DNA of 64,000 bases, from NCBI GenBank assembly GCA_020746875.1, contig JAGTJL010000027.1, positions 248,001 through 312,000 on the forward strand, read 5' to 3'. The notes beneath the pieces are model-generated. The model saw nothing but the letters and a program-made list of their open reading frames with translations, did no database searches and was not told the origin of the DNA. Each line of letters begins with the position of its first letter. The stretch's first letter is position 1. A program made the translations under genes and the position numbers. This document shows positions 4,788 to 43,311 of this stretch, piece by piece. This DNA comes from Rhexocercosporidium sp. MPI-PUGE-AT-0058 (Eukaryota > Ascomycota > Leotiomycetes > Helotiales).

Positions 4788-7700
4788 ATGGCATCCCAAG
4801 TACCGATGAACGCCCCCTTCCAGGGTACAAATGCTGGGTATGATTTTCAGAGCTTCCTTCTTCCGAAAGCCTTCACCCACGCGGTCCCCTATCCAATCAC
4901 TTGTGCCTGTACTAATCATTCAGACCACCCAATGACTTGTGGAGCAAAGCTCTAGAGAGTCTTGAGCCTGCAGACCAACAGGCGATTCGCGCAACAAGCA
5001 CATCTACAGATCGTCTTCAGGTTCTACAAGAGGTGCTCACCTGGTCGCGGACCTGCCAGCAGGCGTCACTTCAGAAACGATGGGTGTGGAAAAATCGAAA
5101 AGTGGAAGTTATCATCGTTCGTGATCTTTTCGCCAAGATGATCACTTGGATCGAGAAGGTGAAAAGCATTGGTGATACTATAGTGCAGTACGATCCCGGA
5201 CATGCTGCTCTACCATGGGCAGCCGCTCGTCTGATACTCCAAGTAAACCTGCGAACTAAGGCTCTCATTTGAGCGGCGTACTAACTTTCTGTCAGGCATC
5301 GATCAACGACGTTCAAACCAATGGGGCAATGCTCGAAGGAATGGAGCTGACTTTTAATCTCATTCCCAAGTCTGAAGTCATCGAACGGCTCTATCTACAC
5401 AGAGCATCGACACTCTAAGTGCTGTTAGACAAATCTCTAGTTGCCCTTTATACTTCTATCCTGAAATTCTTACTCGAGTCCCATCGGTACTTTGGCCAAA
5501 AGACCATCAAGCGAATTACAAAGAGTGTTTTCTATGTTGAAGAGTTCACATCAAGCTTCATATCCAAAATCGAGGCCAATATGAATGAAGTGGAAAGTTG
5601 TGTTCGACTGATGTCTGGAGAGATTATATTTCAAACAGAGACTTCACTGACTGATGTCTCGAAGCGAATGATGAACTTGGACTTACAATATAGAAAGCTC
5701 GACAGTGTCGATGCGCAACTTGCCAGCGTCCGAGACGAGATAAAAGGGAATACGAGGCTTCTGATAGAGACTCTGGAGGACCTGAATCAACCAATCAATC
5801 GGCTTTCTGCCCAGATTCGTACTTTGGACAACCTGAAGGAAGACGAACGATTGAAGATTTTCAATTGGCTTTCGACGGTTGAATATCGAAGTCACCATCG
5901 CAGTAAAGCCAAAACTCTACTCCCTGGCTCGGGTCAGTGGCTTTTGAGGAAACAAGAGTTTATGGAACGGATGAGCAGGAGCACTTCGTCGATCTTGTGG
6001 TTGCACGGCATACCTGGCTCAGGGAAGAGTATGCTGGTAGTACACGTTATCGAGTATCTTCAAGCCCGAGCACAAGGAGATGGTGGCGTTGCGTACTTTT
6101 ACTGTGCCCGTACTGCAAATGAGCCAGAAAGAGCTGATCCAGCTGAGCTTCTCCGGTGCCTTTTAGAGCAAATGGCCTGCTTGGATGAGAGCGAGCCAAT
6201 CCAGCTGCCAATAGTGGCTGTTTATCATTCGAGGAAAAATGAAGCAAGAGGACGGAAACCGGAGAAACTAGGCATGGAAGAATGTGTCGAGGTCGTGATA
6301 GAGTTGCTACGCCTAAACACAGTCACAATTGTCGTTGATGGCTTGGATGAGTGCGATCCAACGCGACGACAAGAACTTCTTGATGCGTTTCAGAAAATTG
6401 TCACAGAATCTGACAACATTGTCAAGATTTTCGTTAGTAGTCGAGACGACCACGATCTTATTCATCGGCTATCAAGAACACCAAACCTCTACATCAAGGC
6501 AGCTGACAACAAGAGCGATATTGAAAGGTTCGTGACTTCCCGTGTCGAAGAGGCGATCTCTAAGGAAAGAATCCTTTGCGGGAAAGTACCTCGAGAATTG
6601 AAAAACATCATTGTTGAAACTTTGACACGGAAAGCTGAGGGGATGTTTCGACTGATCAGCCTTCATATTCAAAGCCTCTGTGATCCAGTCAGGTCAAAAC
6701 ACAGGCGAATGTACTCAACACACTCGAACATCTCCCGTTAGACCTCAAGCATTCATACGATACTATTTTGGCCCAGATATCCTCATCTCAGTATCCCAAT
6801 CCAGAGGTAGCCGACCGCGTCATTAAATGGCTTCCCTGCGCCCAAGAATCTCTGCCTGCAGAAGTCTTTATTGTAGCGATTCGCTCCGACCTAGCTGATC
6901 AAAGTTACCTTCAAAATTCAGACATTCTGAGCATTTGTTGCAACCTGGTCGTTTATGATAACGAGTCTAATAGGTTTCGATTTGCACACTTATCAGTCCT
7001 TGAATATCTGGAACGGCTCAATGTGTACTCGAAAATCAGTGCTAATGCATTGCTGGCCGAACAATGCCTAAACTGGACATTGACCAAGGGAGAACTTTTC
7101 GAAAAGAAGTACATTGTGTACCTGGGAATTTTTGGTGGGATATCATCACAGCCCGAGAAGCCCAAACCGGAGACCAATACAGCTGAATTTGCCACACACT
7201 CGTTCTTCCGCCATGCGAATATCTGCTGGCCGGAATATTCGCGACTTGCTGGCCCATTGAGAACGCAAGGACGTCTGAAATCGGTCCTGGAGTAGTTTCT
7301 CCTTGTTACCACTAACTCCCTGGACGATAACAAGGAGAATTTCTGTCGTTGGATGCATCGTCTCGACATAAAACCGAACGATATCTCACAAGATCTGATC
7401 ACTTCCCAGCCTCCGAACCCATTGTTCGTGGCTTCTATGTTCAATTTGACGGAGATAGTAGCGGCACTTGTTTACAATAACCCGGAAGCACTTCGAGCTC
7501 TGAATTCGTCCAATTTCAACTGCGCTCAAATCGCAGCTCACTATGATCAGCCAGTGACCATCAGCATAATTCTTGAAGAGAGTAACAGACTTCTGTTCCC
7601 ACCAGATTATATCAGGTGCGCGATGTTTGAGGCAGCCCGGATGGGAAATGTATCTGCGTTAGCAGCAGTACTTGACCTCGCGGGGTCTGGCTTCATGTCT

Positions 7701-32351: not shown

Positions 32352-33665
32352 CTAGGCTGGGAAGGTGACTGTTTCCCCCAGACTCTTCCCAACCCAGTAT
32401 CCCACAGCCTCTCTCACAATATTATTACTGCTCCATCTTCTATCCGGATGAACCCTATTCGCAAAATGCAACCAGAAGCTATTCGACCCTCTATCGATGA
32501 CCAAACTCGTTCCAGTAAATCCCGTATGGCTAGCTGTGAGGAGACTCGCCATCGGCCCGGCCGTGTAGTACTGATTCAACTCAAAGCCCAATCCATGCTC
32601 TTCACCAGGAAACTTGGTATTGAAGTTCGTGAAGATCAATCCAACCACCTCAGGCGATAGAATGCGATGACTGCCATAAGTACCATTGTTGAGGATCATC
32701 TGGCAAAATATGGCCGTGTCACCCACGGTGGAAAAAAGACCAGCGTGTCCAGCGACGCCGCTCAGTGCCCATGCGTTCTCATCATGGACAGTGCCGCGAA
32801 CTGGCTGAGGTCTGTGAGGTTCTTCTGGACCTAGAACATCGATTTGGAACTCTTGGGTTGCCATGTCGTGATAAAATGGGAATCTTGGCCCCTCAATGTT
32901 TCCACGATTGAAAAATGTCTTTGTCATCCCAAGTGGAATTGTGTATTGGTAGATCTGAGCGTCGAGGGGAAGTCTTGTGATCCTCTCGAGGACGATGGCC
33001 ATAGTCATGAAATTGAGATCAGAGTATAGGAAAGTGCTTCCAGGCGGATTGATGATTTTCTGAGTGATGATGGCATTGGTCCTCTCAGAGTAGTTGGTGT
33101 AGTTCGACGAGAAGAGAGATGGAACAGGGTCGGCATCAAACCCACTCGTATGAGTGAGAAGCTGCAAAATCGTGATTTCTTCTTTGCCGTTGACTGCGAA
33201 TGCTGGGATGTATGAGGCCACTGTCGCATTCAGACTCAGCCTTTCAGTGTCAAGTTGTCTCAAAGCCGCAATGGTAGTGAAAAGTTTCGTGAGACTCGCC
33301 ATATCGTAGATGGTGTCCACAGTTGCATCTTCTTGTTCGCTCTCAGGTAGATACGTCCCATTCACATCAACGTATAGGTTCCTCTTCCCAACAGCGAATT
33401 CAGACACGATAGTTGACTTATGAGCTATGAGCGTGACAGATCCTGGCTCAACTGGGTGAATCTGGTTGTGAGTCGGTGCTCCATAGTTCGCAGGATGTGT
33501 ATATGCTGTCAAGTTCGCAACCATCTCCCTCAGTGGTACTGATTGCATCCCGACAGATTCAGCAGACCCATATCTGAGGTAATTCAAATGAGCATGATGA
33601 TTGGATTGGACTATCGGTGAGCCGAGAGCCCCAGCCAGGGTAAACAGGAGGGGAAGAATTTGCAT
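32352..33665 (-). CDS. secreted AmiE/YbbE-like serine hydrolase (beta-lactamase fold)
   Basis: Single-exon, 437 residues, class C beta-lactamase/PF00144 family. N-terminal signal peptide (MQILPLLFTLAGALGSPI), so secreted. Catalytic motif 1 is S-x-x-K in DMASLTKLF (S124, K127). Motif 2 is Y-S-D-L-N (Y214-N218). Motif 3 region is HTGFTG (380-385). HTSGF (172-176), VHDENA (293-298) and AGHAGLFST (305-313) resemble the Bacillus AmiE/YbbE branch, whose member is an N-acetylmuramyl-L-alanine amidase acting in muropeptide rescue. That resemblance is from memory of the family; other PF00144 esterases are alternatives. Several NxT/NxS sites (NLT, NGT, NAT, NYT, NYS) fit a secreted glycoprotein. It is near a MurQ-kinase fusion gene, which supports a peptidoglycan role. 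Probably bacterial in ultimate origin, but no introns or composition shift alone prove it. Confidence 0.85.
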   Translation of the reverse strand: MQILPLLFTLAGALGSPIVQSNHHAHLNYLRYGSAESVGMQSVPLREMVANLTAYTHPANYGAPTHNQIHPVEPGSVTLIAHKSTIVSEFAVGKRNLYVDVNGTYLPESEQEDATVDTIYDMASLTKLFTTIAALRQLDTERLSLNATVASYIPAFAVNGKEEITILQLLTHTSGFDADPVPSLFSSNYTNYSERTNAIITQKIINPPGSTFLYSDLNFMTMAIVLERITRLPLDAQIYQYTIPLGMTKTFFNRGNIEGPRFPFYHDMATQEFQIDVLGPEEPHRPQPVRGTVHDENAWALSGVAGHAGLFSTVGDTAIFCQMILNNGTYGSHRILSPEVVGLIFTNFNTKFPGEEHGLGFELNQYYTAGPMASLLTASHTGFTGTSLVIDRGSNSFWLHFANRVHPDRRWSSNNIVREAVGYWVGKSLGETVTFPA

Positions 33666-34199
33666 TTTGGCTTCAGGTTCTCATCTCCATTACCATACCT
33701 GGCCCAAGCAACAGTCATTTGACTGACTTTAAATCCATTCCTGCAGGTACAGTATGGCTTTGTGACGTAGAAAGTCTTCTCAATTTTGTATGACCACCAA
33801 TCACGTCTTAGTAACACAGCCTAATTCACCTTCCCATCCGGGACATATCCAGGTATACTTTACGACGGATGTGAACAGCCGTAGCTACGTTCCACTGCAG
33901 TGTGTAGATCGCTAACGATCACTATCTTGAGAGTTAGCTACTTAGTGCCCTCAAAAATGGGGTACATAAGTCTTACAGGCGACCCGCACAATCGGGATGA
34001 GGGTGTCTAGTAGTGCGCCATGAGTATCACAACGGGTAATAGAACACGGGATGGGATTTTCGATCACTCAGAAAATGGGGTTGAAGATATTTTTTTTCAG
34101 ACTGCCGAGAGTTCTCCTCGACCAGAAACAAGCTACCCCACAAGTCCATGCCTGCCATCCGAATGCTCCTTAACGAGGGCCTCACATTTCAAGTTGGGC
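33666..34199. other. intergenic, promoter of amidase-like gene
   Basis: About 530 bp between the amidase-like start and the stop of the UNC93-like gene. No coding region or clear operator. Confidence 0.5.
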
Positions 34200-35765
34200 T
34201 TAATCTTTGAAGTCTTTTTCGGCCACCTCCTCAACTTCAGCTTCCGCTACAACGGTCGTCATTGTCACGGTCCACACGGTTGGCAGGACTATTGCCAATG
34301 ATCCCATGGACAGACCCCAGTTCATCCCCAGCTGTGTCATTGGTGATGTGTGGAGGGCATTGATTCTCCATGCCATAGCTCCTCCGGTTGCTTGGAAAGT
34401 CTTGTATGCCCCGACAAGAACAGCCGCTCTAGCAGTAGAATTGGACTCGGTTCCAATCAGCCAGTAGCAAAAACCTTGCCACAATGCATCATATGCGCCG
34501 TAAAATATGTAAAGAAACATTGGGCCAGTAGAGAGGGACCCGTCTGTATAGTCCAGGTCTTGCTTATGGCCGTGGGCTACACGACAGTCTTGCCATTTTT
34601 GAAAAGCGTATCCGCCTCCCCAGATGGTCATTCCGGTAGAGAACAGGACCACCCAGCCAAGTTTGGCTCTTGTGGGTCTTGTGAGAAATGGAAGATCGAG
34701 AAGAACTCCGATGAGGAGGCCACCTAGCATTTGGGCGATCCAATACAGAGCCCCATTTAGAGATCGAGTTCGAATATTGAAAGTGAGACCGTTAATATCG
34801 TTTTGTTGGTAGGAGTAAAAGACGTTGGCGCTGTTCAGAGAGTTAGCGAATCCTCAAGACTTCATTGAGGGGGCTCAAGCTCACCAGAAAAAGAGCGGAA
34901 GCATGCAAGCAACTCGCCAAGTAAATAGTGTTTGGATCGTGGTTTTCATGCCATCTTTAAAAGAATGTTTCTCGTGCTCAACAGCTGCATGAAGCTGTGC
35001 GAGCTTAATTCTGGACGGCGAGCAGATGAAGGCCCCGAGGACCCATCCGACGAGCATGATCACCATGAGCGCAATGTATGTTGAGTCGGAGACCGTGCCA
35101 CTTTTGGAGTGGAAGTTCAACCCAAATGAAGCAAGAGAACCAACTCCTCCTCCAAGGTTGAAGATGATCCAAAAGACTGCTATGGCGAGTCCTTTCTGTG
35201 ACTCTTGTACGTAGGTCGTCATGATGGCTCCCTGCACTACCCAGAGCATGGACGCACCAATACCGAGAATTGCACCAGAGGCAATAACAAAAGCCCCATT
35301 GGCATTATCTGATTGATGTGAACACATAAGCTAGAATATTCAAAGAGTGATATTGACTCACGGTTAAAATTCAACAGACTTCCGCTGTAAAGGGCGTATG
35401 TCCATCCACCAAGCAGGAAACACATGCGAGGACCTACCAAAGAGAAAAATGGTCCCGCAACAATCAGAGCAGTTGCAGCCGTAGCAGATAAAAGAGCGAC
35501 TGTCGCATTTGCTGCCACAGTTGGATCAACCTGGCCACTTCCTCCAAGTCCGCCAAGTGCATTGTACATCTACTTTCAAGTCAGCCGATACGTATTTTCT
35601 ATTTAGTAGGAAGAAATAGCTTACCCCTGGACAACAGAAACATATTACGCTTATCAATACTATTTGAGTCCAAGGATTCGCATAGAAGTCTTTCATACGA
35701 CTTCCTCGTTTAGTGCCGAGCTCTACATCTCCTGGCTGAGATGCTGAGTCCTGTTGGTTCGACAT
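34200..35765 (-). CDS. UNC93-like MFS protein
   Basis: Polytopic membrane protein of about 467 residues, fungal UNC93-like branch of MFS. Exons 35765-35625, 35569-35362, 35308-34885 and 34830-34200 all join in frame at GT-AG introns. It begins MSNQQDSASQPGDVELGTKR, then TM1 (IVLISVICFCCPG). Later come MYNALGGLGGSGQ, VFWIIFNLGGGVGSL, then after the last splice FCANVFYSYQQNDING, where family members also have a Q-N-D-I/V-N-like loop. Homologues in other fungi are annotated UNC93-like or DUF895; substrates are mostly unknown. It is divergent from the MurQ-kinase gene across a 695-bp promoter, so sugar uptake in the salvage pathway is a reasonable guess. Confidence 0.85.
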
Positions 35766-36460
35766 GATGGGCAAAGAATGCTTTACGAGTTCAAAATAAC
35801 TTTATGATCTGTAAATGCCTCTGTGAAGAGTGAGTGAACTTGTAGTTGCTCCCTTCTCAAAAAGTTCTGAGTTCATATTGCTTCTTTAATCTGTCAGGTC
35901 AGACCTGGGTACGAACTATCCCACTCTCGTTCGAGCCGTTTGCCACAGATCCGGTAACGTTGAGTGGAATTGTCCCGCTATTGTTAAGAGTGACAGTCGC
36001 GAGTTGAAGTGTAACTTGACTATCGGACCGGCTGTCCGGTAGCGAATCTTGAGGCGGCTTCCTGATGCGGGGAAAAGTCGATATTAGACTTTGATAAAAA
36101 GGAAACGCAGAGCTTCGAACAATCCCACCTTTACAAGTAAAGTAACGTAGCAGAGATAGCCGAGGTTTCCGAGCCGTCCTCGAGCCGTCGCGGGCTCGTG
36201 TTCGTAGACAAACCGGTTCTGTTGTCTGGACTAGTTAGTCAACGGGAACGTGCCAAGGTTGGAGCTGATCTGCAATGTCATGATAGCGGCACGCAACACT
36301 GCGCGAGAGTCGTACTGAGAAATGAAAGGAGAGAGGAGAAAATTCATCAAAGCGATTGATTACTGATTGTAGACTTTTTCCTGGTTTCCTCGTCCTGGTT
36401 TCTTTCCCCTTCGCACTTTTGCTTCGTTGAGGTACAAATAATTGTCGTCAACGAAAGACA
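35766..36460. promoter_or_regulatory. divergent promoter, UNC93-like and MurQ-kinase genes
   Basis: 695-bp intergenic region between divergent starts. It is unusually rich in CGG/CCG elements for this window: ACCGG-N4-CCGGT at 36027-36040, CGAGCC-N6-GGCTCG at 36181-36198, and AACCGGTT at 36211-36218. These suit binding by a Zn2Cys6 regulator such as the one encoded at 38885. Confidence 0.55.
36027..36040. promoter_or_regulatory. candidate Zn2Cys6 site, CGG-N4-CCG
   Basis: Perfect 5-bp inverted repeat ACCGG CTGT CCGGT. Dimeric Zn2Cys6 proteins commonly bind inverted CGG/CCG triplets with fixed spacing. Position is mid-promoter between the divergent carrier and MurQ-kinase genes. Binding is inferred only. 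Confidence 0.4.
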
Positions 36461-36979
36461 ATGACCACTACTATTGTCCTGGATGGACTTCAAACCGAGA
36501 GTCGAAATGCCAACAGCAATGATATCGATAAAGTCAGCACTTTGTTATTGCAGCTAAAAAAGATCTCAAAGCCCTCCATATTGACGGAAATCTGGACTCA
36601 TTAATTGGAATTGCTGCATCCGGAAGGACTCCATATGTTCTGAGTTGCCTCTCATTCGCAAAGTCTCTAGGCTGCGTTACTGTTGGTATTGCGTGCTGCG
36701 AACCTTCGGCTATGAGAAAAGAGGGCAGTACAGACCATATGATCAGCTTGAGTACTGGGCCAGAAGTCGTAACTGGGAGTAAGTACCTCTGTTCTCCAAG
36801 TTATTTCCATCATTTGTGACATCTCATCACTTGAATCCTGTAATAACTGACATGGGAATGAGCCAGGCACGAGAATGAAAGCTGGAACTGGTACTAAGAT
36901 GGTATTGAACATGCTGAGCACTGGCATTATGATCAAGGTTGGCAAAACTTATGGAAACATGGTATGATATAAAGGAATC
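36461..36979 (+). pseudogene. MurQ-like N-acetylmuramate-6-phosphate etherase domain, truncated
   Basis: N-terminal part of a MurQ-kinase fusion. The start reads LQTESRNANSNDIDKVST, the classic MurQ entry. It then jumps, with a frame change near 36550, to DLKALHIDGN and SLIGIAASGRTPYVL, then KSLGCVTVGIACCEPSAM, GPEVVTGS, an intron (36780 to ~36867), [19 protein letters not shown] and VGKTYGNM. About 100 residues expected between DIDKVST and DLKAL, including the phosphosugar-binding GAGTSGRLG block of the SIS domain, are absent. The next intron begins with a good GTATGA after GGAAACATG and has a branch-like TGCTGAC, but where AG should precede ATGATCGATGTC there is GG. MurQ cleaves MurNAc-6-P to GlcNAc-6-P and D-lactate; this copy cannot have that activity as it stands. 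Confidence 0.8.
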
Positions 36980-38293
36980 GTGATGAACTTTGCTGACTCT
37001 GCCTGGATGATCGATGTCAAATCATCGAACCTGAAGTTACAACAAAGGTCCAAGAATATCGTACGTGCGATTTGTGGCGAGAAATCCCCCGCGTCTGACG
37101 AAGAGTTGAAATCGTTACTTGCTGCTTGTGGTGGGAGTGTGAAACTAGTTGTGACAACTATTCTTCTTGACACATCAATTCTAGAAGCCAAGAAGAGGCT
37201 AGAAGATGCTGGTGGTGTTCTCGCAGAAGTTCTTCAAGATTTGAAACCCCGAATCACAAAGTCTCTTGAAACTGAGGATTATGTTCTTTGTGTCGATGGA
37301 GGAGGCAGCAAATGTTGCGCTGTGATTTTGGGGAAGAACGGAGAATCCGGCGAGGGGAAAGCAGGGGAATGCAACGTCTCAAACGTCGGTCTTGATGGGG
37401 CGATATCGTCTATTTCGCTGGCAGTTCAACGAGCTGTTGACTCTTGCTCAGCAACGAAAGGTATACCCTTCAGATCTATCCCTTTTCGGAAGGTTTGGAT
37501 CGGATTAGCGGGGTATGATCGTCCGAACATTGCTAAGCGCATTTACCCTCTTCTCGCGAAAATGTTTCACCCAGTCGTAAGAGACCGATTAGAAATTTCA
37601 AACGACATCGATTTCCTCGCCAAATCTTCCAGCAATTCGAAAAGTGCTGATTCTGTTGTTGTGTTGGTGGCGGGAACTGGGTCTATTGCTATGGCCTTCG
37701 AACGAAACCACGGACAACTTGAGCGGACGGGACGCTCGGGAGGATGGGGTCATTTACTCGGTGATGATGGATCAGCATATGGTATCGGTCGTCAGGCATT
37801 GAGATCAGCTTTGGGATTTGCTGATGAGATCAATTTGCGGAAACGCTCTGGAAATCTTGAGGGAAACCTCAACCCACTCGTGTTGAGGATTTTCGAACAC
37901 TTCGGGCTGAACCAAGCGCTGGAGTCCCCGGTCCGCCTTTTGAATCAGATAGTATCATTTGACTCTCTTGGAGAAATCTCGAGTCACACGAAAAGAATCG
38001 CAGCGGTTGCGAAAGTGGTCGTGGGCTGCAGTTCGTCAAGCCAGCAGGCGAGGGAGATTCTGGAAGAGGGAAGCAAATCTCTAGTTCGTCTACTATGTTC
38101 GTTGGTCATAAATCAGGGAATCGACACTTCGAAAACATCGCTTGTTCTTGCCGGTGGACTGCTACAGAGCAAAGTCTATCGAGATATGTTCCTAGACGAC
38201 TTGGATGCTACTGGTAGTCTGAAGTTTGAAGGCATCCAGGCAATTAACCATCCGGCTTTGAACGCTGCGAGATCTCTGCTCTCAGAGACCTGA
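36980..38293 (+). CDS. BadF/BcrA-type amino-sugar (GlcNAc/MurNAc) kinase domain
   Basis: Uninterrupted 437-codon ORF forming the C-terminal half of the MurQ-kinase fusion. The first ~95 residues are the end of the MurQ part (MIDVKSSNLKLQQRSKNIV) and a linker. The kinase has phosphate-1 motif CVDGGGSKCC (D106-K111), AGTGSIA (231-237), GGWGHLLGDDGSAYGIG (254-270) and an adenosine-side LVLAGGLL near the end. This is the BadF/BcrA/N-acetylglucosamine kinase ASKHA fold, which includes mammalian NAGK and bacterial MurK (phosphorylates MurNAc and GlcNAc). The ATG at 36980 lies in what was intron, so translation from it would release a stand-alone kinase after the upstream damage. Whether it is transcribed is unknown. 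Confidence 0.82.
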   Translation: MMNFADSAWMIDVKSSNLKLQQRSKNIVRAICGEKSPASDEELKSLLAACGGSVKLVVTTILLDTSILEAKKRLEDAGGVLAEVLQDLKPRITKSLETEDYVLCVDGGGSKCCAVILGKNGESGEGKAGECNVSNVGLDGAISSISLAVQRAVDSCSATKGIPFRSIPFRKVWIGLAGYDRPNIAKRIYPLLAKMFHPVVRDRLEISNDIDFLAKSSSNSKSADSVVVLVAGTGSIAMAFERNHGQLERTGRSGGWGHLLGDDGSAYGIGRQALRSALGFADEINLRKRSGNLEGNLNPLVLRIFEHFGLNQALESPVRLLNQIVSFDSLGEISSHTKRIAAVAKVVVGCSSSSQQAREILEEGSKSLVRLLCSLVINQGIDTSKTSLVLAGGLLQSKVYRDMFLDDLDATGSLKFEGIQAINHPALNAARSLLSET

Positions 38294-38884
38294 GACTCAT
38301 AGGAAGCGATCCGTAATGTTGTAGATAGGAGTTGGTCAACAGGCACCGTTGATCTAGACGTCTCACTCTACTCATGTTGCAACGAAGCAAAACAAAACAA
38401 GTGAGCTGAATCCCTTTCCCCCCGGAGGGTCGGAAACCCCCTACATACCACGTGGCTTGGGTTTCGATACTTTTGATTTCGCAGAAGACTAGCACATAGG
38501 TACTGATATACACGGCAACACTGTATGCAGGCAGCGGCACTCTGTCAGAATAAGACTCTCGGTTAATTTTTCCTCGCAAATACAGGGACGAGACGGTGGA
38601 AATCTAGTGGCCGAAAGCCTGGAGCTTTTCCCCGAAGCCCCCGGCAACACGGAAAGGACACAATGTTTCCATCTATCTTTACTGATTGTTCCACTCCGTC
38701 CATTTCTCACTTCAGACACATTCTTAATGTTCAATCAGATGGCATGATTACTAGTGCTCATCTCACGTAAGTGAAGCGAAGTGATGACGTCATCATTCCC
38801 TTTCTCAGTCGATTTCCTCTTCGCATCCACAGCCCATCTCAACCAGTCCTTCTTCCCCCAAGTAAACAAACAAAGGAACAAGCG
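38294..38884. other. intergenic, upstream of Zn2Cys6 regulator
   Basis: About 590 bp: 3' flank of the kinase gene and promoter/leader of the regulator. The last ~70 bp are CT- and CA-rich. No gene seen. Confidence 0.5.
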
Positions 38885-41136
38885 ATGAACCCTTCCCACG
38901 TCCCTGCGGTTCGACTGAGCTGTGAACAGTGCAAGCGACGTAAGACGAAATGTGATAAACAGGTTCCATGCACTGCATGCAAGAATGCCGGTATCAAGTG
39001 CAACACTGTTCAACGGGCACGGAAACCTCGTGGACGCACTGCTCAGCACAAAGGTGGCGAGATAGATACTAGAGTTGCGCGCCTCGAAGATCTTGTCAGG
39101 CAGTTGAAGGTAGGCCCAGCTTATGGAACATTTTCTCGAATTTGTTCGCTGATCACCCCGGCACAGGCCCAGGTACAATCAGGCAAAGGGGATGAACCTA
39201 GGCACCAGGACCCCCACAGTATCTCGTCCGGAAGCCCAGTACCTAAAGATTCCAATGCGCTCCAGAAATACGTTGCTCCAGATTTCTGGGAAGCTCTTTC
39301 GCAGGAGGTTGGTTCTTGAGTCCCGGAAAACCAAGCCACGCTGCTCACTCTCATCACAGGCGAATGGCATTCGTGAGATACTGGAAGAATTTGATAGTGA
39401 AGACTCACCCAGCGACCTCGCAACCGATTCTCCGATGTCTTCGACGGAGCCGAGTTCTAGCCCTGGGGCGCTTCTGTTCAACCACGGTACGCCAAACACG
39501 GCCTGCGACCCAGCACAGCTCATCACCCACGAGATGAAGGGCATTCTATTTTCAATATACAAAGAGCGAGTAGATTGTATCGTCAAAGTCCTTCATTGGC
39601 CCTCAGTACTGGCTGCTATCGACAAGAAAGACACTGGCAACCTTCAAAGTGGACTCGAATCGGCGAGGATACATGCGTTAGAGTTCGCTATTTGTTATAC
39701 AGCCATGTGCACTGTAACAGACGAAGAGTACGAGACCTCACTAGGTTGGAAGAGGGAACCGCTGAGGGGACAACTTCGTCTTTGTGCAGAAATATCCATT
39801 GCAAAAGCCAACCTTCTTGAACAGCCGGATCTGACTGTGCTGCAAGCATTTATCATATACTTGGTAATTTGAATAATCAATTGTATCGACATAGCTGATG
39901 TATGAGCAGCTAGGGCTGCGTTGCTCCACGACGACCGCCTCGGCATGGACGCTTTTGTCTATTGCTGTAAGGCTTGGGAGTGCCCTAGGCCTTGGATCAG
40001 AGGATCCAAGTAAGTTCTCGACCTTTGACCTGGAGATACGTCGAAGAGTATGGTTATCGATTGGAGTGTTAGATTCGCAGTTGGCCCTTGACAGAGGAGC
40101 CCCAGCACTCCTCTCTAGCCAGGACCTACAAGAAATACCACTGAACATCAACGACTCGGATCTGGACCCACAATGCTCAACACCTATAGGATCTGTTGGA
40201 TTTACCGACATGTCCTTCGCATCGATGACACACCAGGCAACACTTTGCGTCAAGGCCTTGGAAGACATTCCACCCGATTTCGACGACTCCTGGAACAAGT
40301 GGAAAGAAACTATCGCCGTGTTCAACGCTTTTGAAGACTACGGAAGCCTTCACTTCTCAGATGTCAATGCATCATCACCGCCGCTTGAACAATACGCCCA
40401 AACTGTCGCAGCAGGATCTCTAGCGAACATCAAATTGATGCTTCGAAGACCACCACAACGGCATCGGCACAGCAGAACTCCTCCATGGGACGATTATGAT
40501 GTTATGAAATCAACCACCTTTATATTAGAGCGATCTTTGTACAAGCAAGCCAACCCCGTCTTCAATCGCTGGGCCTGGTTCAATTGGGTTAAGTGGTATG
40601 CCTTGGCTGTTCTTCTAGCCGAACTTTGTGGGCCTGTAAAGGGCCCTGAAACTGATCACTCATACGTCGTAGCTCAGCAGACTTTTATTGAGTACGCCCA
40701 AGTAGTCGCTGACAGCGAGTCTGGTATGCTTTGGAGACCGATAGTCAAGCTCATGCGACGAGTTCAGCGACTGAGAGGCGGCAGCACGGTGGAAGGGATG
40801 TCAAATTTGCTCTCATCACCTGCCTCTACATCACAAAAGGCTACCCAAGGTGGTGTTGGTAAAGAGAATGGCACTTTTGCAGATCTCACTATCAATCAAT
40901 CGCCAGCACTTGCAGATTCTGGAAATTCTTTTGATCCATACTTTCTCGAAGGAACCTTGGGGAAGCCCGCTGATGATGATGTCTATGGATTGATGGGCCT
41001 TGAAACTAGCCAACCGCTTGGAATGGATCCCATTCCTGGCTATGGGCATTCATGGGCGAACTGGGACAGCTTTCTCGAAGATATGAATAATTCAGCCAGC
41101 ACGGACTGGGGAATGGACTGGCAGAACGTCGCTTGA
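38885..41136 (+). CDS. Zn2Cys6 transcription factor
   Basis: Fungal binuclear-cluster regulator of about 698 residues, nuclear. Exons 38885-39109, 39167-39307, 39360-39863 and 39910-41136; all junctions keep frame. The first intron is a multiple of three with no stop, so its retention would add 19 residues. The cluster is C13-x2-C16-x6-C23-x5-C29-x2-C32-x6-C39 ([20 protein letters not shown]). A basic linker and a coiled-coil-like [11 protein letters not shown] follow. The middle region has [20 protein letters not shown] and [11 protein letters not shown], then [20 protein letters not shown], which is the fungal_trans (PF04082) signature. The C-terminus is acidic and aromatic ([20 protein letters not shown]), like an activation domain. 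Adjacent to the MurQ-kinase gene, so a likely local regulator. Confidence 0.88.
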
Positions 41137-42049: not shown

Positions 42050-42660
42050 GTCGAAGATCTGACCACCGAGATGTTGGCGTTCTTCAACAAGTGAAGGTAT
42101 TTCCCGTTTCCATTGTAAGAGAAAAGATATCTGAACGTGGTGGGATAGGTAGTGAAACAGCTGAGCTTGACCTGTACCCCTGAGAGGACTCTCTGTTCTC
42201 TAATACCGAGCAATGCAGAAAAAGCTTAATTTAAACTGTACGATAAGCGACTTGAGATCTCCGATGCATCCAGAGTCATGACGATAAACTATCTAGGTAC
42301 GAGTAGTGTTGAATGATCCCAAGGCCCCATTTACCTCGCGGAGCGAGACGCTAAGAGTTCTCCAGAAGCCGCAAAACCCGTTCTTGGTATTCCAAGGCGC
42401 TGGACTCCACAGAACGCCTATCGCAGCCCAGCTAGATTTTGTTGCATGATCTGAATCTAGTGCATAGGTTTTGGAGATGGTAGATGGCGTTTTGAGATCG
42501 CCATGTACAAGTTCTGACGTCACCATTCTGGGTCGTGCCTTTTGTGTGTTTATATAACCAAGCAAGTCCACAAATACAAGCACCTTCAAAATTACCAACC
42601 CATACATCTCAGTACATTTTCCATCGACTCCTTATTAGCCAATTGGAAAAGTTTATAGCC
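42050..42660. promoter_or_regulatory. divergent upstream region of SDR remnant and DUF1772 gene
   Basis: About 610 bp. It contains a CCAAT-like TTAGCCAATTGG at about 42636-42647, just before the DUF1772 start. A 104-residue minus-strand frame here has no domain and is not called. Confidence 0.45.
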
Positions 42661-43311
42661 ATGTCTCCCATAATAGCGCTCATCCAAACCTTCAGCATCT
42701 CAACTTCCCTCCTTGCCTCAGGCTCCATCCTCACCCTCTCGCTCTTCTCAATCCCCCTACTCACATCCCAACCCGCATCTCGCTCCCTCCCTCAAATCCG
42801 TTGGCTCTTCTCCCGCGGCTCGCACATTTTCCCACAGGCCGCCATCCTATCTAGCGCAGGCTTCATTGGCCTCGCTTTCTGCTCCCTCGCACCCGGACAA
42901 TCCGCTACGCAAATTCTCAACCTCGCACGCAATAACAGCACGGCTAATGGATATCTCGCTGCCGCGGTGTTGAGTTTTAGTATTGGTCCATTCACGCAAT
43001 TTGTTATGATCCCCACGAATTTCACACTCATCAAGAAGAATGAAGATCTTGGTGGCGCGAGGAGCGAGAAGAGTGCGAATGAGGGGGGCATGAAGGGTGG
43101 GAAGACTGCTGAGGAAAGTGTGGAGGGGAAGGGGGATGTTAATGAGTTTACGGATCTGAGCGGGCCGCTGGGAAAGACGGAACGGGAGGGTACGGAGGAA
43201 GAGGAGAGGCAGGTGAAGGAGTTGCTTGGGAAGTTTGGATGCATGAATGCTTCGAGGGCAGCGTTGATTGGTGCTGGCGGGTTAGTGGGCTTGTTTACTG
43301 CATTGCTGTGA
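42661..43311 (+). CDS. DUF1772 membrane protein, anthrone-oxygenase-like
   Basis: Single exon, 216 residues from ATG 42661. Four hydrophobic segments: residues ~5-38 (LIQTFSISTSLLASGSILTL then FSIPLL), ~60-80 (AAILSSAGFIGLAFCSLA), ~100-120 (GYLAAAVLSFSIGPFTQFV) and the C-terminal AALIGAGGLVGLFTALL. FTQFVMIPTN before a charged loop, and the overall layout, fit DUF1772 (PF08592), which includes anthrone oxygenases of anthraquinone pathways and many proteins of unknown role. No polyketide synthase lies in the window, so a biosynthetic role is unproven. The hydrophilic loop (~125-190) is Gly/Glu/Lys-rich and variable. Confidence 0.72.
   Translation: MSPIIALIQTFSISTSLLASGSILTLSLFSIPLLTSQPASRSLPQIRWLFSRGSHIFPQAAILSSAGFIGLAFCSLAPGQSATQILNLARNNSTANGYLAAAVLSFSIGPFTQFVMIPTNFTLIKKNEDLGGARSEKSANEGGMKGGKTAEESVEGKGDVNEFTDLSGPLGKTEREGTEEEERQVKELLGKFGCMNASRAALIGAGGLVGLFTALL

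What the first reader, a model, noticed from the sequence alone, without database searches (positions are those of the whole stretch)
32352..41136. Putative muropeptide (bacterial peptidoglycan) salvage cluster in a fungus
Four neighbouring genes fit one pathway: a secreted AmiE/YbbE-type serine hydrolase, an UNC93-like carrier, a MurQ domain fused to a BadF-type amino-sugar kinase, and a Zn2Cys6 regulator. In Bacillus, AmiE and MurQ belong to the same MurNAc rescue operon, so finding both families side by side in a fungus is unlikely by chance. Together they would release MurNAc from bacterial wall fragments, import it, phosphorylate it and convert it to GlcNAc-6-P and D-lactate. The enzyme families are read from sequence; the pathway and the carrier's role are inference.
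Basis: partly seen in the sequence, partly recalled or inferred. Interest (0 to 1): 0.88.

Follow-up and report, generated by a model that had tools for sequence, protein, structure and literature searches.

The report
Fungal muramic-acid salvage cluster, etherase broken
A fungus carries neighbouring genes that look like a kit for eating pieces of bacterial cell wall; some other fungi seem to have the kit complete, but in this isolate the key etherase enzyme has lost its active site.

Summary
The four genes are real: a secreted AmiE/YfeW-type serine hydrolase, an UNC93 carrier, a MurQ–BadF-kinase fusion gene and a Zn2Cys6 regulator. Compared with Leptodontidium and Cadophora proteins, about 93–95 residues are gone and the frame shifts; both glutamates matching E. 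coli MurQ Glu83 and Glu114 lie in the missing part. A second lesion looks like a lost splice acceptor. Apart from one weak partial match, no other MurQ was found in the 62.7 Mb assembly. The kinase half stays open.

The co-location is not chance. Among 25 named fungi in both hit lists, MurQ–kinase and UNC93 genes have neighbouring locus tags (9) or share a contig (15); the 25th cannot be judged. The amidase is linked in 10 of 16. The hydrolase resembles YfeW/AmiE, not seven other beta-lactamase-fold loci of this genome. E. coli has murQ–murP–yfeW; Tannerella has murT–murK–murQ.

Best reading: an ascomycete MurNAc/muropeptide salvage cluster, not found described in fungi in my searches, with its etherase step lost in this isolate. 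The carrier's substrate is inference: close UNC93 relatives occur in genera without a listed MurQ–kinase hit.

The parts
32352..33665 (-). Secreted (by its N-terminus, judged by eye) serine hydrolase of the AmiE/YfeW (N-acetylmuramyl-L-alanine amidase / PBP4B-like) type, single exon, 437 aa; motifs SLTK, YSD, VHDENAW..GHAGLFS, HTGFTGT
   Evidence: PF00144 E 4e-48; best NCBIfam PRK03642/PBP4B E 1e-44, below that model's cut-off, next 7e-14; 33% identity to E. coli YfeW
34200..35765 (-). UNC93-family carrier, 4 exons (34200-34830, 34885-35308, 35362-35569, 35625-35765), 467 aa, intact
   Evidence: PF05978 E 1e-10 on the ORF of one exon; GT-AG introns; 96% identity to Leptodontidium
35766..36460 (.). 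Divergent intergenic region shared by UNC93 and the MurQ-kinase gene; holds one CGG-N9-CCG palindrome (36024-36038), which is not significant on its own
   Evidence: 7 such sites in the window, 7.35 expected
36461..36541 (+). Remnant of MurQ N-terminus (27 residues), followed by a deletion of about 93-95 codons with a frame shift
   Evidence: relatives P0002-P0005 and P0008 full length
36544..36961 (+). Second part of MurQ domain (TIGR00274 from about position 115), split by an intron at 36779-36866
36962..37006 (+). 45-nt stretch left out by the deposited protein model, as an intron with GT...GG ends; likely a mutated acceptor (inferred)
37007..38293 (+). C-terminal end of MurQ plus BadF-type amino-sugar kinase (MurK-like), open to the stop codon
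   Evidence: PF01869 E 3e-17; 0 of 24 otherwise invariant columns broken (a weak test)
38885..41136 (+). Zn2Cys6 / Fungal_trans transcription factor, 4 exons (38885-39109, 39167-39307, 39360-39863, 39910-41136), 698 aa, intact
   Evidence: PF00172, PF04082 on its ORFs; spliced model without inner stops

Best explanation
The locus is a fungal cluster for salvaging N-acetylmuramic acid (MurNAc) from bacterial wall fragments, and in this isolate it has lost its etherase. In intact relatives the inferred steps are: (1) the secreted AmiE/YfeW-type hydrolase cuts the peptide from MurNAc; (2) the UNC93 carrier takes the sugar up; (3) the kinase half of the fusion makes MurNAc-6-P; (4) the MurQ half splits it into GlcNAc-6-P and D-lactate; (5) GlcNAc-6-P enters ordinary amino-sugar catabolism; (6) the Zn2Cys6 protein regulates. 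Shown here: the gene families, the conserved glutamates, the fusion, the co-location across fungi, and the deletion in this assembly. Inferred: every activity, the carrier's substrate and the regulation. In this isolate step 4 is missing, so the pathway stops at MurNAc-6-P, or the kinase half now serves on its own (for example on GlcNAc).
For: Relatives: MurQ-kinase and UNC93 co-located in 24 of 25, MurQ-kinase and amidase in 10 of 16 (built). The profile of 14 fungal fusions hits solved MurQ at E 1e-102 against 4e-25 for GKRP; among solved kinases its best match is 8zo3, named MurNAc/GlcNAc kinase, E 5e-23. Of 88 listed fungal homologues of 550 aa or more, the Glu83 equivalent is present in 85 (3 have a gap there) and the Glu114 equivalent in 88. 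Bacterial loci: E. coli murR-murQ-murP-yfeW; of 80 bacterial murQ loci kept, 21 have a BadF kinase ORF and 13 an amidase ORF of 128 bits or more in the fetched stretch, none fused. This isolate: MurQ active-site segment absent and frame shifted; one further weak partial TIGR00274 match (24.6 bits) and no second PF01869 match in the assembly.
Against: No activity, expression or growth data. With the window's kinase sequence alone the best solved matches are a broad hexokinase (2e2n) and human NAGK, slightly ahead of 8zo3, and the best NCBIfam kinase model is a GlcNAc kinase, below its cut-off. The residue before the catalytic Asp is Asn here and in 38 of 88 (Thr in 35); PMC10465942 holds Asn at what I take to be this place to hinder MurNAc binding, although 8zo3 has Asn there too. 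UNC93 relatives of the same clade occur in Colletotrichum, Aspergillus and Penicillium, which have no row among the 120 listed of 381 MurQ-kinase hits. The amidase is not linked in 6 of 16, one of which has contigs too short to judge, and not linked to UNC93 in 15 of 25. No NamZ and no GH25 match in this genome. The deletion could be an assembly error; no reads were available. Regulator conservation was not tested.
Confidence: 0.68

Rival explanations
1. The cluster here is simply decaying: the MurQ-kinase gene is a pseudogene, the kinase ORF has just not yet gathered stops, and the neighbours remain for other reasons. (This overlaps with the best explanation, which also has the etherase lost.)
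For: Large frame-shifting deletion plus a non-canonical GT-GG intron; the kinase region's branch is somewhat longer than its sisters' (0.198 against 0.137-0.158).
Against: 441 open codons; 0 of 24 invariant columns broken, though most of the 87 sequences score 0 or 1, so the test is weak; the amidase branch shows no acceleration; UNC93 is 96% identical to Leptodontidium.
Confidence: 0.4
2. The fusion is a GlcNAc (chitin) kinase with a sugar-phosphate-sensing MurQ/GKRP-like domain, as the label 'glucokinase regulator family' in the records suggests; bacterial walls are not involved.
For: Record names. Best NCBIfam kinase model is a GlcNAc kinase; human NAGK is among the best solved matches of the single sequence. 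The C. acetobutylicum MurK acts on both sugars with a slight preference for GlcNAc (passage of PMC5790795).
Against: MurQ glutamates kept in nearly all long homologues; far stronger match to MurQ than to GKRP; co-location with an AmiE/YfeW-type hydrolase in 10 of 16.
Confidence: 0.15
3. UNC93 and MurQ-kinase form the functional unit; the amidase-like hydrolase is an unrelated secreted hydrolase that happens to lie nearby in some Helotiales and Xylariales.
For: UNC93 linkage 24 of 25 against amidase linkage 10 of 16; amidase homologues also occur in fungi without a listed MurQ-kinase.
Against: Amidase linkage recurs in Leotiomycetes and Sordariomycetes (classes recalled); the family is the one encoded in bacterial murQ operons.
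Confidence: 0.25
4. The deletion is an assembly artefact and the isolate has an intact MurQ.
For: No reads available; a single assembly only.
Against: The deposited model also lacks the N-terminal part (P0001), though it probably comes from the same assembly; a second lesion lies in the same gene.
Confidence: 0.06

Closest known systems
Bacillus subtilis murQ-murR-murP-amiE-nagZ-ybbC cluster
   Same: MurQ etherase, an amidase of the same family (by a Bacillus sonorensis relative, 30% identity), transporter and regulator together (passages of PMC5061867).
   Different: PTS transporter MurP, which phosphorylates during uptake (passages); no separate kinase named in the cluster; NagZ and YbbC (NamZ, recalled) present. 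The fungal cluster has an UNC93 carrier and a fused kinase; no NamZ match in this genome.
Escherichia coli murR-murQ-murP-yfeW
   Same: MurQ and the YfeW-type hydrolase in one gene group; the YfeW/PBP4B model PRK03642 is the hydrolase's best NCBIfam hit.
   Different: PTS uptake, no kinase gene in the group, bacterial-type regulator.
Tannerella forsythia murT-murK-murQ operon
   Same: PTS-independent transporter, BadF-family MurNAc kinase and MurQ: the same logic (passages of PMC5790795).
   Different: Sodium-symporter-type MurT instead of UNC93; separate genes; no amidase named in the passages read.
MurQ in protists and in ants
   Same: Bacterial-type MurQ in eukaryotes: read as digestion of bacterial walls in free-living protists (passage of PMC7052976), as likely defence in ants (passages of PMC13320244).
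   Different: No fusion and no gene cluster mentioned in the passages read.
Fungal GlcNAc cluster (NagA, GH3, NDT80-type regulator; recalled)
   Same: Amino-sugar catabolism; a candidate copy exists elsewhere in this genome at C6:744-754 kb.
   Different: Other genes and substrate; could take over downstream of MurQ.

Membership tests
MurQ (MurNAc-6-P etherase) | MurQ/SIS sequence family over its full length | tested here: not met
   The window gene's two TIGR00274 matches cover positions 115-191 and 187-290 of 291; close relatives are full length with PF22645
MurQ (MurNAc-6-P etherase) | Two catalytic glutamates (E. coli Glu83, Glu114; roles recalled) | tested here: not met
   Both lie in the missing segment in the window; present in 85 of 88 and 88 of 88 long fungal homologues
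MurK / BadF-type amino-sugar kinase | PF01869 domain with the conserved catalytic Asp | tested here: met
   ISND in the window, Asp in 86 of 88 long homologues
MurK / BadF-type amino-sugar kinase | Nearer to MurNAc kinases than to GlcNAc or broad hexokinases | tested here: inconclusive
   Profile of 14 fungi: 8zo3 best, just ahead of 2e2n; window sequence alone: 2e2n and NAGK ahead of 8zo3; NCBIfam best is a GlcNAc kinase below cut-off
MurK / BadF-type amino-sugar kinase | Phosphorylates MurNAc | not testable with these tools
   No assay; a passage of PMC10465942 says MurNAc binding cannot be identified from sequence analysis
AmiE/YfeW amidase family | Serine hydrolase motifs and family signature, nearer to YfeW/AmiE than to other PF00144 proteins | tested here: met
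   PRK03642 E 1e-44, though 153 bits against a cut-off of 385; motifs shared; the seven other PF00144 loci fetched from this genome (L002-L008, of 26 matches), read as exon ORFs, lack the motifs and score 33 bits or less or give no hit on the fungal profile
AmiE/YfeW amidase family | Cleaves MurNAc-L-Ala | not testable with these tools
   No assay
UNC93 carrier family | PF05978 / MFS sequence family | tested here: met
   One exon ORF hits PF05978 and PF07690; the ORF of the last exon hits neither; the 120 listed homologues carry both
UNC93 carrier family | Transports MurNAc or muropeptides | not testable with these tools
   Inferred from co-location in 24 of 25 only
GKRP (glucokinase regulator) | Closer to GKRP than to MurQ | tested here: not met
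   Profile of fungal fusions: E 4e-25 to GKRP against 1e-102 to MurQ
MurNAc salvage gene cluster | Etherase, kinase, carrier and amidase co-located (in relatives; in the window the etherase is broken) | tested here: met
   MurQ-kinase, UNC93 and amidase on one contig in Leptodontidium, Apodospora, Xylaria nigripes, X. hypoxylon and X. multiplex; successive tags in the last two
MurNAc salvage gene cluster | Conserved, co-acting regulator | not tested

The most novel reading that the evidence does not exclude
UNC93-family carriers are muramyl-sugar transporters: ascomycetes rebuilt the bacterial MurNAc salvage pathway as a eukaryotic gene cluster by fusing murQ to murK and recruiting UNC93 for uptake. 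The animal UNC93 family's link to sensing of microbes (recalled) may then go back to such transport.
Probability: 0.3. Interest if true: 0.85.

Novelty: new variant of a known kind. Interest (0 to 1): 0.62.

Why it matters
It predicts that many ascomycetes can feed on bacterial wall sugar, names a candidate eukaryotic MurNAc carrier, and points to intact relatives in which this can be tested. This isolate would be a natural etherase knock-out.

Tried and rejected
CGG-N9-CCG site in the shared promoter: 7 sites in the window against 7.35 expected, so no evidence. NamZ and GH25: no match in this genome. AnmK-family genes were found, but such fungal proteins may be levoglucosan kinases (recalled), and one lies near a sugar transporter, so I did not count them as pathway parts. 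The amidase tree rooted on AmpC, AmpH and three paralogues was spoiled by very long branches: the outgroup did not form one side, and one paralogue (L005) fell beside the fungal clade on an open fork. I relied on scores, identities and motifs instead. The UNC93 tree did not make the linked genes one clade (4 changes), which tells against a strictly dedicated carrier. No ORF held both murQ and kinase in 80 bacterial loci (these were the best 80 kept of at least 583 relatives). No structure was predicted. The ten paper searches listed no paper that I could recognise as describing MurNAc salvage in fungi; the library holds only openly licensed papers, and most listed papers were not opened. Veiga-da-Cunha et al. 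2009 on MurQ and GKRP was not held.
Full report
What is there. The window lies in a 62.7 Mb, 60-contig fungal assembly. The protein identical over 97% of the kinase ORF is from Rhexocercosporidium sp. MPI-PUGE-AT-0058. Order: PF00144 hydrolase (-), UNC93 carrier (-), a 695-bp divergent intergenic region, MurQ-kinase (+), Zn2Cys6 regulator (+). Hydrolase, carrier and regulator give intact models.

The MurQ half is broken. Five close relatives (P0002-P0005, P0008) encode one protein of 657-661 aa with MurQ and BadF kinase domains. In the window the gene starts with 27 residues like theirs, then continues in another frame at the residue matching about position 121-123 of the Leptodontidium protein. 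E. coli Glu83 and Glu114 map to Glu87 and Glu118 there, inside the missing segment. That these are the catalytic residues is recalled from the literature. The deposited model starts after the gap and leaves out 36962-37006, which has GT...GG ends. Two unnamed relatives (P0006, P0007) begin exactly after this place, which suggests an old intron there (inference). TIGR00274 finds, besides this gene, only one weak match in the assembly (24.6 bits, positions 124-202), and PF01869 finds no second one. The kinase half shows little decay: open frame, 0 of 24 invariant columns broken among 87 sequences (a weak test, since most of them break 0 or 1), and a mildly longer branch.

The cluster is conserved. 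The other named rows were left out because their organisms are not in the other two lists, or (a second Cladophialophora immunda row, Talaromyces marneffei) offered no comparison within one assembly. Strains and assemblies were kept apart. MurQ-kinase and UNC93: 25 organisms in both lists; 9 have neighbouring locus tags and 15 share the contig length only, several of these megabase contigs on which nearness is not shown; 1, Phialemonium thermophilum, has contigs of 2-4 kb and cannot be judged. For Metarhizium humberi the contig lengths listed differ and the link rests on the tags. MurQ-kinase and amidase: 10 of 16 linked, 4 by tags, 6 by contig only; of the 6 unlinked one is again P. thermophilum. 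Amidase and UNC93: 10 of 25. In Xylaria hypoxylon and X. multiplex amidase, MurQ-kinase and UNC93 bear three successive numbers. The organisms belong to Leotiomycetes, Sordariomycetes and Eurotiomycetes (recalled).

The hydrolase. Best NCBIfam model is PBP4B/YfeW, E 1e-44 (below its cut-off), then 7e-14. It is 33% identical to E. coli YfeW and 29-35% to the 14 hydrolases of bacterial murQ loci with 128 bits or more, over 273-374 aligned positions; three paralogues of this genome give 24-26% over 88-248 positions and E. coli AmpH 31% over 147. The YSD, GHAGLFS-like and HTG-TG motifs occur in 119, 116 and 117 of 120 listed homologues, and in none of seven other PF00144 loci fetched from this genome. 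The rooted tree was unreliable.

The kinase. The profile of fungal fusions matches 8zo3, named MurNAc/GlcNAc kinase, best among kinases, but the window's sequence alone matches a broad hexokinase and human NAGK slightly better, and NCBIfam's best is a GlcNAc kinase model, below cut-off. Asn precedes the catalytic Asp here and in 38 of 88 homologues, Thr in 35; passages of PMC10465942 hold Asn at what I take to be this place to hinder MurNAc binding, though 8zo3 also has Asn. Substrate choice between MurNAc and GlcNAc is open.

Origin. Twelve fungal MurQ domains form one side of a branch against 81 bacterial ones (SH-aLRT 99, quick method). The donor is not resolved. Among 80 bacterial loci none is fused; 21 have a BadF kinase ORF, 12 of them directly behind murQ, which is the order of the fungal fusion (counted from its list).

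Mechanism and limits. By comparison with Bacillus, E. coli and Tannerella, the best reading is MurNAc/muropeptide salvage. Candidate downstream genes exist: NagA-like matches below the model's cut-off and a GH3 with a NagZ-like match, also below cut-off, in one 10-kb stretch with an NDT80-type regulator. Against a dedicated carrier: 25 UNC93 rows from Colletotrichum, Aspergillus and Penicillium, genera without a row among the 120 listed of 381 MurQ-kinase hits. Activity, expression and the regulator's role are untested.

Papers were seen as passages only: PMC5061867, PMC5790795, PMC10465942, PMC13320244, PMC7052976, PMC9159588, which lists a murQ gene in Monascus under chitin biosynthesis, and PMC5169069. 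The rest were seen as search listings.

Noticed in passing
G000:C59:1410057-1411202 (L114) and G000:C5:1264093-1265154 (L116): Two AnmK-family (PF03702) genes in this fungus, the first near a sugar transporter and an ORF with weak, below-cut-off Zn2Cys6 matches. They may be anhydroMurNAc kinases or levoglucosan kinases (the latter recalled).
   Followed up: partly
L117 (G000:C6:744000-753900): GH3 gene with a NagZ-like match, a NagA-like match and an NDT80/PhoG-type regulator in one 10-kb stretch, like the known fungal GlcNAc cluster (recalled).
   Followed up: partly
P0150: The basidiomycete Crepidotus variabilis has an amidase 75% identical to the window's, closer than the Aspergillus ones listed (63-69%): possible transfer between fungi, or contamination.
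   Followed up: no
window 36962-37006: The deposited model needs a GT-GG intron with a branch-site-like CTGAC; either a mutated acceptor or a real non-canonical intron.
   Followed up: partly
window 42496-43308: Anthrone oxygenase-like ORF (PF08592) next to the cluster.
   Followed up: no
window 5419-7292: NACHT/NPHP3_N-type NLR-like ORF, followed by a weak GPI inositol-deacylase winged-helix match.
   Followed up: no
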